In this document: in pieces, positions 9,317 to 33,750 of the stretch
Position numbering within the stretch: the first letter of the stretch is position 1
How the letters are laid out: each line of letters opens with the position of its first letter
Source of the DNA: Chitinispirillaceae bacterium
Lineage (GTDB): Bacteria; Fibrobacterota; Chitinivibrionia; Chitinivibrionales; Chitinispirillaceae
Length of the DNA: 33,754 nt
Assembly (NCBI GenBank): GCA_016929595.1
Contig: JAFGIN010000174.1
Span: 1-33,754 of the forward strand
Direction of reading: 5' to 3'
The notes under the pieces: model-generated
Database searches by the model: none
The model's input: the letters and a program-made list of their open reading frames with translations, nothing else
What the model was told of the DNA's origin: nothing
Made by a program: the position numbers and the translations under genes

Positions 9317-10120
9317 CTATTTTCTTTTTCTTACGAAGAATGCGCCTGTGAGGCTTGTGAGGCCCAGGAGCATGAGAGAGAGAGAACCAGCCTCTGGTAC
9401 ATCACGGACAGAAACTGTATACTGTTCAATTTCACCCTGCAGTGTTGAATTCGGGTTGGTGGCTGTAAAGGCTTTCCAATCCTTTGCTGTAGGTATAGGC
9501 ATATTTTCATACCTAACCTGATTGTTTGCATCAATATAAGTGCTAGTATTAGCAACAGGATTTCCATCTTTTGTATTGAGCGCTGCCAGGTCATCACTGC
9601 ACATCGTCCGGGCGGTTAATGTGTAATCACGGGCACTTTCGAAAGTGTATTCGAATCCAATTGAACCAAGATAGGTTAATTTGCTGAGATCAGTGATAGG
9701 ATTTTGTGAGTCATCAAAAACATTTCCATCGTAATAAGAAGAAGTTGTCGGATCCCACCACCATCCAACAGTTTTCGAATTACCATTTGATGCAAGTGCC
9801 CAGTTACCCTTTGCCATTTCAACATCATCAAGCCAGACTTTTGCTACATCAGAAAGGTGAGTTCCCTGGAATTCTTTGTAGATTTCTACTTTGAAATCGA
9901 CAGTCTGACCAACTGAGAATTCAAGACCGCTAGACAGGTTAAGCCAACTGGAACCATCATCAATTGAATAAAAAACACCATTGTTTGATGATCCGGAAGT
10001 AGCGATAGTCTCTTTACCGATACTCTGCCATTTTGTTGTTTCGTGAATTGGAGTTGCCTGAGACATTCCAATAAGGGTTAAACACCCAAGACCTACTTTC
10101 AACATTTTACCTTTTAACAT
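9317..10120 (-). CDS. PEP-CTERM sorting-domain exoprotein
   Basis: A 267-residue secreted protein. The start is ATG at 10120, because a good SD (GGAGG) lies between the upstream in-frame ATG at 10132 and this one. The N-terminus is a signal peptide (MLKGKMLKVGLGCLTLIGMS, then QATP). The C-terminus is a textbook PEP-CTERM tripartite signal: VPEAG, then a hydrophobic stretch SLSLMLLGLTSLTGAFFV, then RKRK. Such proteins are processed by a membrane exosortase and usually go to the cell surface or extracellular matrix together with exopolysaccharide. The body is beta-rich and Asn/Ser/Thr rich (WWWDPTTSSYYDGN, ENMPIPTAKDWKAF), with no enzyme motif that I recognise. No exosortase lies in the window. 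A sigma-54 type promoter lies about 50 bp upstream of the start. Confidence 0.85.
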   Translation of the reverse strand: MLKGKMLKVGLGCLTLIGMSQATPIHETTKWQSIGKETIATSGSSNNGVFYSIDDGSSWLNLSSGLEFSVGQTVDFKVEIYKEFQGTHLSDVAKVWLDDVEMAKGNWALASNGNSKTVGWWWDPTTSSYYDGNVFDDSQNPITDLSKLTYLGSIGFEYTFESARDYTLTARTMCSDDLAALNTKDGNPVANTSTYIDANNQVRYENMPIPTAKDWKAFTATNPNSTLQGEIEQYTVSVRDVPEAGSLSLMLLGLTSLTGAFFVRKRK

Positions 10121-10182
10121 AGATACCTCCATTTTACTGTTACATTTGCGGTATAGTTATTTTTAAGTTCGACTACACTATA

Positions 10183-28319: not shown

Positions 28320-28676
28320 GTGAACCGGATTCTGATAACAATTATTTTACTTGCCTGCAGCAATATTTTTATGACCTTCGCCTGGTATGGTCACCTACGT
28401 AACCTTGCTCACAAACCCTGGATTATCGCAGCACTGGTCAGCTGGGGAATCGCCCTTCTTGAATATCTTCTTCAGGTACCCGCGAACCGTATCGGGCATA
28501 CCATCCTTCCAGTCGGGCAGCTTAAGATCATACAGGAAGTGATCACACTTGCTATCTTTGTCCCTTTTTCGATATTATATATGAAAGAAAAATTTACTAC
28601 AGATTACATCTGGGCAGGGCTTTGCCTGCTTGGGGCAGTGTTTTTTATTTTCAGAAAAAAATTGTTTGGTACATAA
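28320..28676 (+). CDS. DUF486 family membrane protein
   Basis: 118 residues with four predicted membrane helices, starting at GTG 28320 after AAGGA. It matches the DUF486 pattern: FMTFAWYGHLRNL in the first loop, ALVSWGIALLEYLLQVPANR in helix 2, QLKIIQEVITLAIFVPFS in helix 3 and a C-terminal LCLLGAVFFIFRK. The family is related to DMT/EamA-type small transporters. Substrate unknown. It stands alone between a terminator and a dispersed repeat and is not obviously part of the ligase cluster downstream. Confidence 0.88.
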   Translation: MNRILITIILLACSNIFMTFAWYGHLRNLAHKPWIIAALVSWGIALLEYLLQVPANRIGHTILPVGQLKIIQEVITLAIFVPFSILYMKEKFTTDYIWAGLCLLGAVFFIFRKKLFGT

Positions 28677-28759: not shown

Positions 28760-28788
28760 TTGAAAAACCGTTTTGTACAATGTATACT
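28760..28788 (+). promoter_or_regulatory. Sigma-70 promoter of the amidoligase cluster
   Basis: TTGAAA (28760-28765), an exact 17-bp spacer, then TATACT (28783-28788): five of six matches in each hexamer. The predicted start near 28795 lies downstream of the ATG at 28780, which excludes that ATG and supports GTG 28819 as the first codon. Confidence 0.6.
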
Positions 28789-28818
28789 TACTACTTACTG
28801 AATTTCAGTAGAGTAATT

Positions 28819-29529
28819 GTGAAACCCTTCAAAATTGAAAAACAACCCGACGATATAACCTGCGGCCCAACCTGTCTCCATGCTGTCTACTCTTATTATG
28901 ATGATATTGTCCCGTTAAGCGACGTCATTAAAGAGGTCCCATCGCTGCAGACAGGAGGTACTTTAGCAGTGCTGTTGGCTTGTCATGCGCTCAAACGGGG
29001 TTATGATGCGCTTATGTATGTATATAATCTTCAGTTGTTCGACCCAACGTGGTTTCAGTCTGCCAGTGCTGATATAAGAAAGAAGCTCTCAGAGCAGCTT
29101 CTTCACAAACAGGGTAAAAGGCTTACCGCTGCCACAAACGCTTATCTGGAGTATCTGGATCTGGGTGGAAAAGTGCAATACTGTGATCTTACTCCCGAAC
29201 TTATTACCGGTATTATTAGAAATGGTGCCCCTATTTTAACAGGGCTCTCAGCTACCTACCTGTACGATTGCGCCAGAGAACGGGAACTGAGTACACACAA
29301 AAGTATCTATGATGATATCCGCGGGACACCAACGGGGCATTTTGTTGTTATCACCGATATAGAATCAGACTCTGACAATGTTCATATTGCCGATCCAAAT
29401 CATGACAACCCGCTGTTCAGTAATAGTTATTATACAGTCAAAATGCAGAAGCTTATAAACTCCATTATGCTTGGGATTATCACTTATGATGGAAATCTGC
29501 TTATAATTCAACCTAAGGAATCGATATGA
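28819..29529 (+). CDS. Cytosolic C39-like cysteine peptidase of the amidoligase cluster
   Basis: The start is GTG 28819 (MKPFKIEKQPDDITCGPTCL), giving 236 residues; an upstream ATG at 28780 lies before the predicted transcription start and has no SD. The papain-like C39 fold is indicated by Gln9 and the nucleophile Cys15 in QPDDITCGPTCL, His174 in TPTGHFVVITDI and Asp192 in VHIADP. C39 peptidases usually cleave after double-glycine leaders and are fused to ABC exporters. This one is free-standing, without a signal peptide or membrane span. Free C39-like genes are found beside RimK-like and GCS2-like ligases, so it may trim, transfer or release a peptide made by the ligases. A 155-bp gap with no clear terminator separates it from the ATP-grasp gene. 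Confidence 0.78.
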   Translation: MKPFKIEKQPDDITCGPTCLHAVYSYYDDIVPLSDVIKEVPSLQTGGTLAVLLACHALKRGYDALMYVYNLQLFDPTWFQSASADIRKKLSEQLLHKQGKRLTAATNAYLEYLDLGGKVQYCDLTPELITGIIRNGAPILTGLSATYLYDCARERELSTHKSIYDDIRGTPTGHFVVITDIESDSDNVHIADPNHDNPLFSNSYYTVKMQKLINSIMLGIITYDGNLLIIQPKESI

Positions 29530-29684
29530 AATAACCGGACCATTCTCACTTGTCTTTGTACCGGTCTCCTGCGTGGCAGCCTTGATTTTCGTGATGCTTG
29601 TGCAACAGCACCTTGGAACCCAACAAAAATCCTGAGTGATAATTGGCAACTTTATTCCATAGCGACTCCTAAAATAAGAAAGAA

Positions 29685-31151
29685 ATGAAAAAGTTCATTG
29701 TTACTACCAGAGAAGAAGATTTTACGCTGCAGCTGCCCGAAGTAGAAATTGTAACCGCAAGAGAATACCTTACCGATCCGAGGTTTACCGAAACCAGGAA
29801 TGCACGTGTCTATAATTTGTGTCGTCAATACCGTTATCAGGCTGCAGGGTATTATGTATCATTGCTTGCGGAAGCACGCGGTCACCGTCCGGTCCCGAGT
29901 GTAACAACAATGCGCGATACCGTTTCGCAGTCGATTACGAAATCTCTTTCGGATGATATCGACCACCTGATCCAGCAATCCCTGCATCGTATCACCTCAA
30001 AAGAGTTCACGATAAGTATTTACTTTGGCAAAAATTTGTCAAAGCAGTATGATGCGCTCTGCAGAGCGCTGTACACACTTTTTGAATCGCCTTTGCTTCG
30101 GGCGTTTTTCATTTTCAAAGAGCGATGGCAACTGCAGAAAGTTTCGACCATCTCGTTTAAAGATATCCCTGCACATCACATGCCCTATGTAGAGCAATTT
30201 GCACGTGATTACTTCTCGGGCAGAAAGGTCTACACATCACATCTGACACGCAAGCTCTACTCTATTGCCATACTTGTTGATCCAAAAGAAAAATCTCCCC
30301 CTTCTGATGAAAAAGCTTTGAAAAAATTCATTCACGCAGCTGACAAGCTTGACCTTGAAACACGAATTATCGAACGTGATGACCTCAGCGATATCGTTGA
30401 ACATGATGGTCTGTTCATTCGGGCAACAACAGCAGTCAATAATTTCACCTATCAATTCGCACGGAAAGCATCGGCAGAGGGTCTGGTGGTCGTTGATGAT
30501 CCGCTTTCGATCCTGCGCTGTACAAATAAGGTTTATCTAAGCGAACTGCTTGGACGATTGAAAGTCCCTACCCCGAAAACCCTCATCCTGCACCGGGAGA
30601 ATATCAATCTTGCAATTCCAACACTGGGTTTGCCACTGGTTCTGAAACTTCCTGACAGCTCTTTTTCTCAAGGTGTTGTAAAAGTATCTTCTGAACAGGA
30701 CCTTCAGGACAAAGTAAAACATTTTTTCGAGCATTCGGATTTTATTGTGGCCCAGGAGTACATTCCTACCGATTTCGACTGGCGAATAGGAGTTCTCGGC
30801 GGAAAAGCTATTTTTGCATGTAAATATTTCATGGCCCGTAATCACTGGCAGATTTACAACTGGAACGCATCCAGTGGACAGCAATGTGGTAAATGGGAAA
30901 CGATCCCTGTTGAGCTGGCACCGCCGGAGGCGGTAAAATATGCATTGCGGGCAACCGCACCAATCGGCAATGGATTTTATGGCGTTGACATTAAAGATTA
31001 CAACGGGACTATTGTTGTCATTGAAGTCAATGATAACCCGAGTCTGGATTCCGGTGTTGAAGATCAGATTTTAAAGGACCATCTCTACGATTCACTGGCC
31101 GCCTACTTTCTACGCAGTATAGAACAACAGCAGAGGGGATTTCATCAATGA
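29685..31151 (+). CDS. RimK-like ATP-grasp ligase with RLAN N-terminal domain
   Basis: 488 residues. The first 150 or so match the RLAN-type domain that precedes a subset of RimK-like ligases (REEDFTLQLPEVEIVTAREY, RVYNLCRQYRYQAAGYYVSL, RGHRPVPSV). The ATP-grasp region (about 265-480) shows VVDDPLSILRCTNKVYL, PTPKTLILH, LPLVLKLPDSSFSQGVVKV, VAQEYIPTDFDWRIGVLGG and the metal-binding VIEVNDNPSLDSGVED near residues 446-459. Such enzymes join an amine, usually an amino acid, to a carboxylate through an acyl phosphate, using ATP; RimK itself adds glutamate to ribosomal protein S6. The substrate here is unknown. The stop overlaps the next start by four bases (ATGA), so translation is coupled. Confidence 0.9.
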   Translation: MKKFIVTTREEDFTLQLPEVEIVTAREYLTDPRFTETRNARVYNLCRQYRYQAAGYYVSLLAEARGHRPVPSVTTMRDTVSQSITKSLSDDIDHLIQQSLHRITSKEFTISIYFGKNLSKQYDALCRALYTLFESPLLRAFFIFKERWQLQKVSTISFKDIPAHHMPYVEQFARDYFSGRKVYTSHLTRKLYSIAILVDPKEKSPPSDEKALKKFIHAADKLDLETRIIERDDLSDIVEHDGLFIRATTAVNNFTYQFARKASAEGLVVVDDPLSILRCTNKVYLSELLGRLKVPTPKTLILHRENINLAIPTLGLPLVLKLPDSSFSQGVVKVSSEQDLQDKVKHFFEHSDFIVAQEYIPTDFDWRIGVLGGKAIFACKYFMARNHWQIYNWNASSGQQCGKWETIPVELAPPEAVKYALRATAPIGNGFYGVDIKDYNGTIVVIEVNDNPSLDSGVEDQILKDHLYDSLAAYFLRSIEQQQRGFHQ

Positions 31152-32374
31152 ACCCGATATACCGCCTTTTTGAAGGTTACGGGATCGAACTGGAATATAT
31201 GATCGTTGATCAATGTTCAACAGCAGTATCCGGTATCGCTGATAAATTGCTTGCGGATGCAGCCGGTAAAGGCGCTTACAGGTATGACTGCGGCACAATC
31301 GGCTGGTCAAATGAACTGGCACGGCATGTCATCGAGCTGAAAAACATAGAACCGGCAGGCAGTCTTAATGAACTCTCAACAGATTTTCATAAGCAGGTCG
31401 ACTCGATCAATGATCATTTGAAAAAATACGATTGCAGGCTCATGCCATCAGGCATGCACCCATTCATGGATCCGCTCCGCGAGAGTCTGCTCTGGCCTGT
31501 GGATGATGAAGATATTTACAAAACATTTGATCATATCTTCAACTGTCAGGGTCATGGTTGGACTAACCTCCAGAGTATCCATTGTAACATCTCTTTTTCA
31601 AACGATAATGAGTTCGCCAGACTGCATACGGCAATCCGACTGGTACTGCCATTATTACCAGCACTGTGCGCAAGCACTCCGATTGTCGAAGGAAGAGCTA
31701 CAGGACTCCTTGACAACCGTCTTGTATTTTATCGTAAAAACCAGAAAAAACTGCCGCTGATGACAGGACATGTTATTCCTGAACCGGTGTTTTCGCGTGA
31801 TGAATACGAGAGTGTCATTCTTCAACCCATGTACCGCCAGATTGCACCATTCGATCCGGAACGCATTCTCCAGTATGAATGGCTCAACTCACGTGGTGCT
31901 ATCGCACGCTTCGAGCGGATGGCTATTGAAATCAGACTGATGGACATTCAGGAGTGTCCGATGGTCGATATTGCTGTTTGCGCTCTGGTAATCGAAACGA
32001 TAAAGGCACTTGCATTCGAAAAGATTAGCAGTTTTAACCAGCAAAGAGTCTTTTCTGAAATTGAACTCGAAAAAATCCTTCTTGAAACCATCCGGTCCGG
32101 CTGTTCCGCAACAATTACAAATAGCGATTATCTTCAGGCCTTAGGATTAAAAGGAATCACCACAATGAATGCTTTAACCATCTGGGAAACATTTGCCCGG
32201 GACATTCTCCCTGAAAATCATTTTGCTCACAATGGACTACGGACACTATTTTCCCATGGGACGCTTGCGAAACGTATTCTTTCGAAAAGTGGCTCACACC
32301 CATCACGGGAGCAGTTGACTTTACTTAATAAAAAACTCTGTGATTGCCTCCGTGACAACAAACCGTATGCATAA
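31148..32374 (+). CDS. GCS2-like carboxylate-amine ligase (glutamate-cysteine ligase family)
   Basis: 408 residues of the glutamine-synthetase/GCS superfamily. The N-terminal metal-binding motif is EGYGIELEYMIVD (9-21, with E14 and E16). IELKNIEPAG (62-71) matches the second conserved acidic strand, LQSIHCNISF (141-150, His145 and Asn147) the ATP/metal H-x-N motif, and RFERMAIEIRLMDIQECP (about 252-270) the C-terminal Arg/Glu cluster. The family condenses glutamate or a similar acid with an amine at the expense of ATP. Being next to a RimK-like ligase suggests a second ligation step on the same product rather than glutathione synthesis. It overlaps both neighbours, by 4 bases upstream and 8 bases downstream, as in a tight operon. 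Confidence 0.85.
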   Translation: MNPIYRLFEGYGIELEYMIVDQCSTAVSGIADKLLADAAGKGAYRYDCGTIGWSNELARHVIELKNIEPAGSLNELSTDFHKQVDSINDHLKKYDCRLMPSGMHPFMDPLRESLLWPVDDEDIYKTFDHIFNCQGHGWTNLQSIHCNISFSNDNEFARLHTAIRLVLPLLPALCASTPIVEGRATGLLDNRLVFYRKNQKKLPLMTGHVIPEPVFSRDEYESVILQPMYRQIAPFDPERILQYEWLNSRGAIARFERMAIEIRLMDIQECPMVDIAVCALVIETIKALAFEKISSFNQQRVFSEIELEKILLETIRSGCSATITNSDYLQALGLKGITTMNALTIWETFARDILPENHFAHNGLRTLFSHGTLAKRILSKSGSHPSREQLTLLNKKLCDCLRDNKPYA

Positions 32375-33080
32375 TCTGTTTATCAGCTGTGAACACGCTT
32401 CGAATCTCGTACCAGAGCAGCTCCGGACAATCCTGGAAAAAAAGGTACAATTGTTACGATCACATCGGTCATATGATCAGGGGGCACTCGATGCAGCAGA
32501 ACGAATTGCAGAAGCAACCGGAGCTACATTGATACATGGAAAGTATACCCGACTTGCTGTCGATCTGAACCGAAGTGAAAAAAATCCACAGCGATTTTCC
32601 CGGTACTCGCGCCAGCTCGATAGCGAAGTTCTTGAACTTCTTGAAAAAAAGTTTTACATACCATACAGGAATGATATCAAAACAAGTATTACAGAGATAG
32701 TTCAGAAAAAATCCAGTGTGCTGCACCTTTCTATACACTCGTTCACGCCTGTTCTTGACGGAGTAAAACGTGATGCTGACATCGGTCTGCTTTATGATCC
32801 ATCGCGTATAGATGAACGCCTATTTGCTTCCCGGATGAAAACAGAACTCGCCCGGATCGCTCCGGAACTGAAAGTACGTTATAACTATCCCTATAGAGGA
32901 ATATCTGATGGTATAACAACATGGCTGCGCAAACATTTTACAGGCGATGAGTATGCAGGACTAGAGATAGAATTCAATCAGAGATTACTGGGAAACATAC
33001 CTGGCTGGAATACCTGTTTACAAAATTTCATTGCCGCACTTGGAAAGGTGCAGGAGATAGAACCTGGAATTGACACGTAA
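32367..33080 (+). CDS. N-formylglutamate amidohydrolase-like enzyme
   Basis: The start is ATG 32367 (MHNLFISCEHASNLVPEQ), sharing eight bases with the end of the GCS2-like gene (ATGCATAA). A longer GTG start at 32340 adds nine unlikely residues. 237 residues. The family pattern shows SCEHASNLVP (a likely Zn ligand His10), HRSYDQGALDAAERIAEATG, YTRLAVDLNRSEKNPQRFSR, LHLSIHSFTP (His motif), DADIGLLYDP and YRGISDGITTWLRKHF. NFGA-fold zinc hydrolases remove formyl or similar acyl/amide groups from glutamate. Here it probably hydrolyses or edits the product or tag made by the two ligases. No SD is visible, consistent with coupled translation. Confidence 0.85.
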   Translation: MHNLFISCEHASNLVPEQLRTILEKKVQLLRSHRSYDQGALDAAERIAEATGATLIHGKYTRLAVDLNRSEKNPQRFSRYSRQLDSEVLELLEKKFYIPYRNDIKTSITEIVQKKSSVLHLSIHSFTPVLDGVKRDADIGLLYDPSRIDERLFASRMKTELARIAPELKVRYNYPYRGISDGITTWLRKHFTGDEYAGLEIEFNQRLLGNIPGWNTCLQNFIAALGKVQEIEPGIDT

Positions 33081-33216: not shown

Positions 33217-33384
33217 CCTCAATTGTGCAATAAAACTGCTTTCAAGTGCAAAAACGTAGCTGTAATGTGTAAATAACGTGCTGTCAGGTACACGATAGTT
33301 GCTGTCGTGTGCAATCAATGCGCTGTCGTGTGCATTAATAGTGCTGTCAGGTACGTTGGATGCGCTGTCATTAAAAATGGGCAA
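33217..33384. repeat. 21-bp tandem repeat array, about 6-8 units
   Basis: Units begin at 33238, 33259, 33280, 33301, 33322 and 33343, in exact 21-bp steps, with weaker units at 33217 and 33364. Each has a conserved 12-base part, consensus GCTGTC-NN-GTGC, and a variable 9-base part. On the minus strand an open frame (33208-33447, 79 codons) reads the array as heptapeptides with conserved A-H/P-D-S (for example HDSALIA, HDSNYRV, PDSTLFT). That frame has no good SD and no recognisable domain, so I call the repeat, not a gene. Confidence 0.75.
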
Positions 33385-33693: not shown

Positions 33694-33750
33694 AATCCCG
33701 ATCCCGAATGAAAATATCGGGATTCATTCGGGATCGGGATTCATTCGGGA
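33694..33750. repeat. Perfect 19-bp inverted repeat with 17-bp tandem unit at window edge
   Basis: Positions 33694-33712 (starting AATCCCGATCCCG) and 33723-33741 (ending GGGATCGGGATT) are exact reverse complements around a 10-base loop. CGGGATTCATTCGGGA occurs at 33718-33733 and again at 33735-33750, a 17-bp period. It may continue beyond the window. This is the form of an extragenic palindromic or miniature repeat element. Confidence 0.7.

What the first reader, a model, noticed from the sequence alone, without database searches (positions are those of the whole stretch)
28760..33080. Four-gene peptide/amide-ligase cluster: C39 peptidase, RLAN-ATP-grasp, GCS2-like ligase, NFGA hydrolase
Two different ATP-dependent carboxylate-amine ligases sit next to a cytosolic cysteine peptidase and a glutamate-type amidohydrolase, with one promoter in front and overlaps of 4 and 8 bases joining the last three genes. 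Family knowledge says the ligases form amide bonds to amino acids while the other two cut such bonds, so the set looks like synthesis and turnover of a small peptide or a peptide tag on a protein. From memory, computational surveys of amidoligases have listed similar neighbourhoods, but I know of no identified product. No ribosomal precursor peptide or exporter is visible.
Basis: partly seen in the sequence, partly recalled or inferred. Interest (0 to 1): 0.8.

Follow-up and report, generated by a model that had tools for sequence, protein, structure and literature searches.

The report
Conserved four-gene small-peptide make-and-recycle cassette
This bacterium carries a four-gene cassette, found in the same order across many unrelated bacterial phyla, with two enzymes that join amino acids and two that cut such bonds; it most likely makes and recycles a small capped peptide that nobody has yet identified.

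Summary
Window 28780-33080 (+) encodes an intact C39-type cysteine peptidase, an RLAN/RimK-type ATP-grasp ligase, a GCS2-type ligase and a formylglutamate-amidohydrolase (NFGA) relative; the last three overlap by 4 and 8 bp. Key residues are intact. All four families sit together, same strand and order, in 43 of 103 RLAN neighbourhoods spanning many phyla. In 168 genomes of the own phylum, 73 have all four and 73 none. Presence is nested: NFGA within C39 within GCS2, which nearly coincides with RLAN. In Fibrobacter-like genomes the set splits into RLAN-GCS2 and C39-NFGA pairs, a ligase and a hydrolase module. Elsewhere GCS2/NFGA are missing and RLAN sits beside a GNAT acetyltransferase, in Azospirillum fused to a C39 homologue. 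No precursor peptide, carrier, exporter or other recurrent partner was found. Best model (inferred): GCS2 caps an amino acid with gamma-glutamate, RLAN adds a residue, C39 then NFGA dismantle the product, resembling vertebrate NAAG metabolism. The product is unknown. From memory, a 2009 survey (Iyer et al., not readable here) covers such neighbourhoods, so this is a well-supported member of a predicted kind, not a new kind.

The parts
28760..28788 (+). sigma-70-like promoter candidate (TTGAAA-17-TATACT)
   Evidence: consensus scan, 10/12 matches; a consensus match is not proof
28780..29529 (+). C39-like cytosolic cysteine peptidase; probable true start GTG 28819. Invariant Q22, C28, H187, D205
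   Evidence: Pfam C39_2 1.6e-6; 48-sequence family alignment; AlphaFold model pLDDT 90.9
29685..31151 (+). RLAN + RimK-type ATP-grasp ligase; invariant K282, K321, R367, D435, E447, N449
   Evidence: Pfam RLAN 1.8e-45, RimK 1.6e-9; alignments; nearest solved relatives LysX/RimK
31148..32374 (+). GCS2-type glutamate carboxylate-amine ligase; GhExE motif G12-I-E14-L-E16 intact
   Evidence: Pfam GCS2 2.1e-29; alignment; motif meaning from PMC2588565
32367..33080 (+). N-formylglutamate-amidohydrolase-like metallohydrolase (alternative start GTG 32340)
   Evidence: Pfam FGase 1.5e-23; nearest solved relative Atu2144/2odf, E 4e-39; alignment

Best explanation
The cassette makes and recycles a small N-capped peptide. 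Proposed steps: (1) GCS2 activates the gamma-carboxylate of glutamate with ATP and joins it to the amine of an amino acid X, giving gamma-Glu-X. (2) The RLAN/RimK ATP-grasp ligase joins a further amino acid or amine Y, giving gamma-Glu-X-Y. (3) The C39-like peptidase cuts the RLAN-made bond. (4) The NFGA-like metallohydrolase, an N-acyl-amino-acid hydrolase, removes the gamma-glutamyl cap. RLAN+GCS2 form the synthesis module and C39+NFGA the turnover module. In 'type B' genomes an acetyltransferase stands in place of GCS2/NFGA, so the cap would be acetyl. Shown here: the families, intact active sites, conserved order, nested co-occurrence, modular split and GNAT alternative. Inferred: all substrates, bond identities, step order and direction of C39.
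For: Order C39>RLAN>GCS2>NFGA on one strand: all four in 43 of 103 loci, and C39, RLAN and GCS2 in 26 more. Own phylum: 73 of 168 genomes with all four, 73 with none. Nested presence: no genome has NFGA without C39 or C39 without GCS2, and 9 genomes keep only RLAN+GCS2; this fits C39 then NFGA acting after synthesis. In Fibrobacter-like genomes C39-NFGA form an adjacent pair in differing surroundings while RLAN-GCS2 stay adjacent elsewhere. Genes missing from a locus were often found elsewhere in the genome: GCS2 in 4 of 4 C39-RLAN loci tested, C39 in Legionella and a planctomycete, NFGA in Nitrosomonas and Blastopirellula. Pairwise distances of the four proteins correlate, r 0.56-0.83. Six genomes with a GNAT near RLAN have no cassette-type GCS2 or type-A C39 anywhere, and Azospirillum has a GNAT fused to a C39 homologue next to RLAN. 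No other recurrent partner and no conserved small ORF.
Against: No substrate is known for any member. Many genomes lack C39 or NFGA, so turnover is not obligatory. C39 could be a transferase (phytochelatin-synthase-like) rather than a hydrolase. The Fisher tests are not corrected for phylogeny; by genus the counts are 15, 13, 11 and 9 of 41. Breznakibacter (L104) has RLAN+NFGA with no GCS2 or type-A C39 found, and L078 has RLAN+GCS2+NFGA with no C39 found.
Confidence: 0.5

Rival explanations
1. A glutathione-like thiol or phytochelatin-like metal-binding peptide: X is cysteine, RLAN plays the GshB role and C39 is a transpeptidase. This is a special case of the best model with a redox or metal function.
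For: Characterised GCS2 relatives mostly use cysteine (knowledge). The C39 model also matches phytochelatin synthase Alr0975 at low similarity, E 4e-4. The five genomes of the phylum with a clear GshB-type domain (E<1e-10) all lack the cassette.
Against: The GshB exclusion rests on five genomes of other families. C39 matches PeiR and double-glycine peptidases better than phytochelatin synthase. No redox or metal partner genes recur. The RLAN ligase resembles RimK/LysX, not GshB.
Confidence: 0.2
2. A protein-tagging system: RLAN adds residues to a protein, as RimK does to ribosomal protein S6, and C39/NFGA remove them.
For: RimK/LysX kinship. The RLAN N-terminal domain, whose model resembles ArgX/LysX, could bind a protein.
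Against: No conserved small protein or carrier beside the cassette. LysW absent from 41 related genomes.
Confidence: 0.15
3. C39 and NFGA are biosynthetic tailoring enzymes (acyl transfer, trimming) of a longer natural product rather than turnover enzymes.
For: Papain-like relatives such as BtrH act as acyltransferases (PMC10318531). The C39 gene usually leads the operon.
Against: Nine genomes of the phylum keep only RLAN+GCS2. No other biosynthetic, export or resistance gene recurs.
Confidence: 0.15

Closest known systems
RLAN amidoligase neighbourhoods predicted by Iyer et al. 2009 (Mol. Biosyst. 5:1636, cited in PMC10318531; full text not available here)
   Same: From memory: same ATP-grasp family and similar neighbourhoods with GCS2 and peptidases; PMC10318531 cites it for the possible ligase role of DUF3335-GNAT fusions.
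   Different: The nested co-occurrence, the ligase/hydrolase split and the GNAT alternative are measured here; whether that paper also reported them could not be checked.
N-acetylaspartylglutamate (NAAG) metabolism of vertebrates: NAT8L, RIMKLA/B, GCPII, ASPA (knowledge)
   Same: Same logic: capping enzyme, RimK-like ATP-grasp ligase, peptidase, N-acyl-amino-acid metallohydrolase.
   Different: Cap made by GCS2 (or a GNAT), peptidase is C39-type, all four encoded in one bacterial operon. Analogy of logic, not membership.
Glutathione synthesis (GCS2-type GshA + GshB)
   Same: gamma-Glutamyl ligase followed by an ATP-grasp ligase.
   Different: ATP-grasp is RimK/LysX-like with an RLAN domain; two hydrolases are added; no GshB domain in the own genome.
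N-acetylglutaminylglutamine amide (NAGGN) cassette
   Same: GNAT plus ATP-grasp plus amide chemistry plus a peptidase (knowledge).
   Different: No NAGGN family hit among the window proteins; no asparagine-synthetase partner recurs.

Membership tests
RLAN/RimK ATP-grasp ligase | RLAN domain plus ATP-grasp domain above Pfam cut-offs | tested here: met
   154.7 vs 25 bits and 38.1 vs 21 bits
RLAN/RimK ATP-grasp ligase | ATP/Mg-binding residues conserved | tested here: met
   K282, K321, R367, D435, E447, N449 invariant in 48 sequences; region aligned with LysX/RimK structures
GCS2 ligase | PF04107 above cut-off and GhExE motif | tested here: met
   103.3 vs 21 bits; G12-x-E14-x-E16 invariant
GCS2 ligase, YbdK subfamily (TIGR02050) | NCBIfam cut-off 176.4 bits | tested here: not met
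   52.8 bits
C39-like peptidase | Gln/Cys/His/Asp catalytic set | tested here: met
   Q22, C28, H187, D205 invariant in 48 sequences
Double-glycine ABC-transporter C39 peptidase | fused to or beside an ABC exporter | tested here: not met
   single domain; no exporter beside the window cassette and none recurs next to cassettes elsewhere
HutG N-formylglutamate deformylase (TIGR02017) | NCBIfam cut-off 278.75 bits | tested here: not met
   21.7 bits; FGase superfamily membership is met
LysW-dependent amino-group-carrier pathway | LysW carrier in the genome | tested here: not met
   0 of 41 genomes, 4 positive controls
RiPP/graspetide or pupylation-like system | conserved small precursor or tag protein near the ligase | tested here: not met
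   no small ORF (20-90 aa) conserved beyond close relatives
NAAG-like cycle | ligases make an N-capped peptide that the two hydrolases undo | not testable with these tools
   needs enzyme assays

The most novel reading that the evidence does not exclude
The cassette encodes a widespread bacterial counterpart of NAAG metabolism: a cytosolic capped peptide built by two ATP-dependent ligases and dismantled by two dedicated hydrolases, in which lineages exchange the cap chemistry (gamma-glutamyl by GCS2, acetyl by GNAT) around one RLAN ligase. It would be a new class of small-molecule pool present across many bacterial phyla.
Probability: 0.3. Interest if true: 0.75.

Novelty: new member of a known kind. 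Interest (0 to 1): 0.52.

Why it matters
At least 581 genome stretches encode a relative of this ligase, and the kept loci come from Bacteroidota, Planctomycetota, Verrucomicrobiota, Pseudomonadota, Nitrospirota, Omnitrophota and others. A metabolite made by a cassette that widespread should be common, yet no identified product was found in the literature searched here. The nested presence and the ligase/hydrolase split give a concrete, testable order of steps and a minimal pair (RLAN+GCS2) to express first.

Tried and rejected
LysW-type carrier protein: none in 41 relatives. Ribosomal precursor or tag peptide: no conserved small ORF. Extra partner gene: only GNAT beside GCS2-less RLAN; other recurring families were generic or shared by close relatives. 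Domain fusions among the four families: none in 103 loci. RLAN domain as an internal copy of the ATP-grasp domain: not supported by profile comparison, although its model matches ArgX/LysX. Horizontal gain of the window's copy apart from its own family: the tree suggests it but the AU test does not reject one clade, p 0.088. Surroundings of the split C39-NFGA pair as a clue to substrate: no consistent neighbours seen. RNA element: none. A CpxR motif before PA1345, taken from memory to be the P. aeruginosa RLAN gene: motif only, not bound in DAP-Seq, so not used (PMC12802237). Literature on a product: nothing found. One Pfam call with wrong coordinates failed and was not repeated.

Full report
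The observation. RLAN and GCS2 overlap in ATGA (31148-31151), GCS2 and NFGA by 8 bp (32367-32374). Pfam places each protein above its curated cut-off; no NCBIfam model passes its cut-off for any of the four, so each is a distinct branch: not HutG, not YbdK, not RimK itself. The start of the C39 gene is probably GTG 28819: the promoter-like site 28760-28788 runs over ATG 28780, and the extra N-terminal residues are modelled poorly. C39 and RLAN are 155 bp apart here.

Active sites. Family alignments built from other phyla keep the expected residues, and the window has them: C39 Q22/C28/H187/D205; GCS2 GhExE (motif from PMC2588565); ATP-grasp K282, K321, R367, D435, E447, N449; NFGA E9, H10, H33, D37, R62, H124, E200, E202 counted from ATG 32367 (which of these bind metal was not tested).

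Co-occurrence. With plasmid loci and own-phylum loci, 103 neighbourhoods were annotated by profile search: 43 hold all four, 26 C39+RLAN+GCS2, 12 RLAN+GCS2, 6 C39+RLAN, 3 RLAN+GCS2+NFGA, 1 RLAN+NFGA, 12 RLAN alone; every hit is on the same strand and in the same order. In 168 genomes of the own phylum RLAN occurs in 92, GCS2 in 93, C39 in 82 and NFGA in 74; 73 have all four and 73 have none, and presence is nested. Fisher p values (1e-27 to 1e-41) ignore shared ancestry; by genus the counts are 15, 13, 11 and 9 of 41. Genes absent from a locus were often found elsewhere in the same genome. The first refutation condition is not fulfilled either.

Modules. In several Fibrobacter-like genomes C39 and NFGA form an adjacent pair in differing surroundings (L137-L140) while RLAN-GCS2 remain adjacent elsewhere. 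Nine genomes keep RLAN+GCS2 without the hydrolases. This separates a ligase module from a hydrolase module.

A second arrangement. In six loci RLAN lies directly beside a GNAT acetyltransferase (L034, L072, L115, L122, L133, L134). The genomes of five of these, and of L055 where the GNAT is about 2.3 kb away, contain neither the cassette-type GCS2 nor the type-A C39 family; L034 is a plasmid record whose genome was not searched. Three of them have only a distant NFGA relative (E 1e-23 to 1e-31). In Azospirillum the GNAT is fused to DUF3335, homologous to the type-A C39 by profile comparison (E 1.7e-5, catalytic motifs aligned). PMC10318531 notes such fusions and cites Iyer et al. 2009 for a possible ligase role. 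GCS2 and GNAT therefore look like alternative ways to cap an amine around the same RLAN ligase. Draft genomes of unknown completeness limit this.

Structure. The C39 model (pLDDT 90.9) is closest to the endoisopeptidase PeiR, C39 peptidases and, more weakly, phytochelatin synthase, at TM-scores of 0.4-0.5 by query length. The RLAN N-terminal domain (pLDDT 90.3) resembles ArgX/LysX (E 6e-4), with no sequence sign of internal duplication. The ATP-grasp half is nearest LysX/RimK.

Mechanism. Most likely GCS2 makes gamma-Glu-X, RLAN adds Y, C39 removes Y and NFGA removes the cap. This matches the logic of vertebrate NAAG metabolism (capping enzyme, RimK-like ligase, peptidase, acylase; knowledge) but not its proteins. 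The nested loss order fits, because NFGA is useful only if C39 supplies its substrate. Substrates, step order and direction are inferred. A thiol or phytochelatin-like product is the main special case: the five genomes with a clear GshB-type domain lack the cassette, too few to weigh much. A protein tag is less likely because no target, carrier or tag gene accompanies the cassette.

Novelty. From memory, Iyer et al. 2009 named the RLAN domain and listed comparable neighbourhoods; the text is not held here. The locus is filed as a new member of a predicted but uncharacterised kind. What is added is the measured conservation, the nesting, the module split and the GNAT alternative. No paper with an identified product was found.

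Noticed in passing
L034:4763-7470; L072, L115, L122, L133, L134: RLAN ligase beside a GNAT acetyltransferase (fused to DUF3335/C39 in Azospirillum) where cassette-type GCS2 is missing: an alternative form of the system.
   Followed up: partly
L104:7819-10225: Breznakibacter has RLAN followed by NFGA with no GCS2 or type-A C39 found in the genome: an exception to the nesting.
   Followed up: partly
window 28320-28676: DUF486/DMT_6 small membrane protein just upstream on the same strand; not a recurrent partner elsewhere.
   Followed up: partly
window 33295-33348 and 33716-33750: Short tandem repeats (about 21 and 17 bp units) downstream of the cassette.
   Followed up: no
window 9317-10132 (-): ORF ending in what looks like a PEP-CTERM-type sorting signal (VPEAGSLSLMLLGL...VRKRK).
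   Followed up: no
genome of L080 (G197): Two copies of the cassette-type GCS2 in one planctomycete genome.
   Followed up: no
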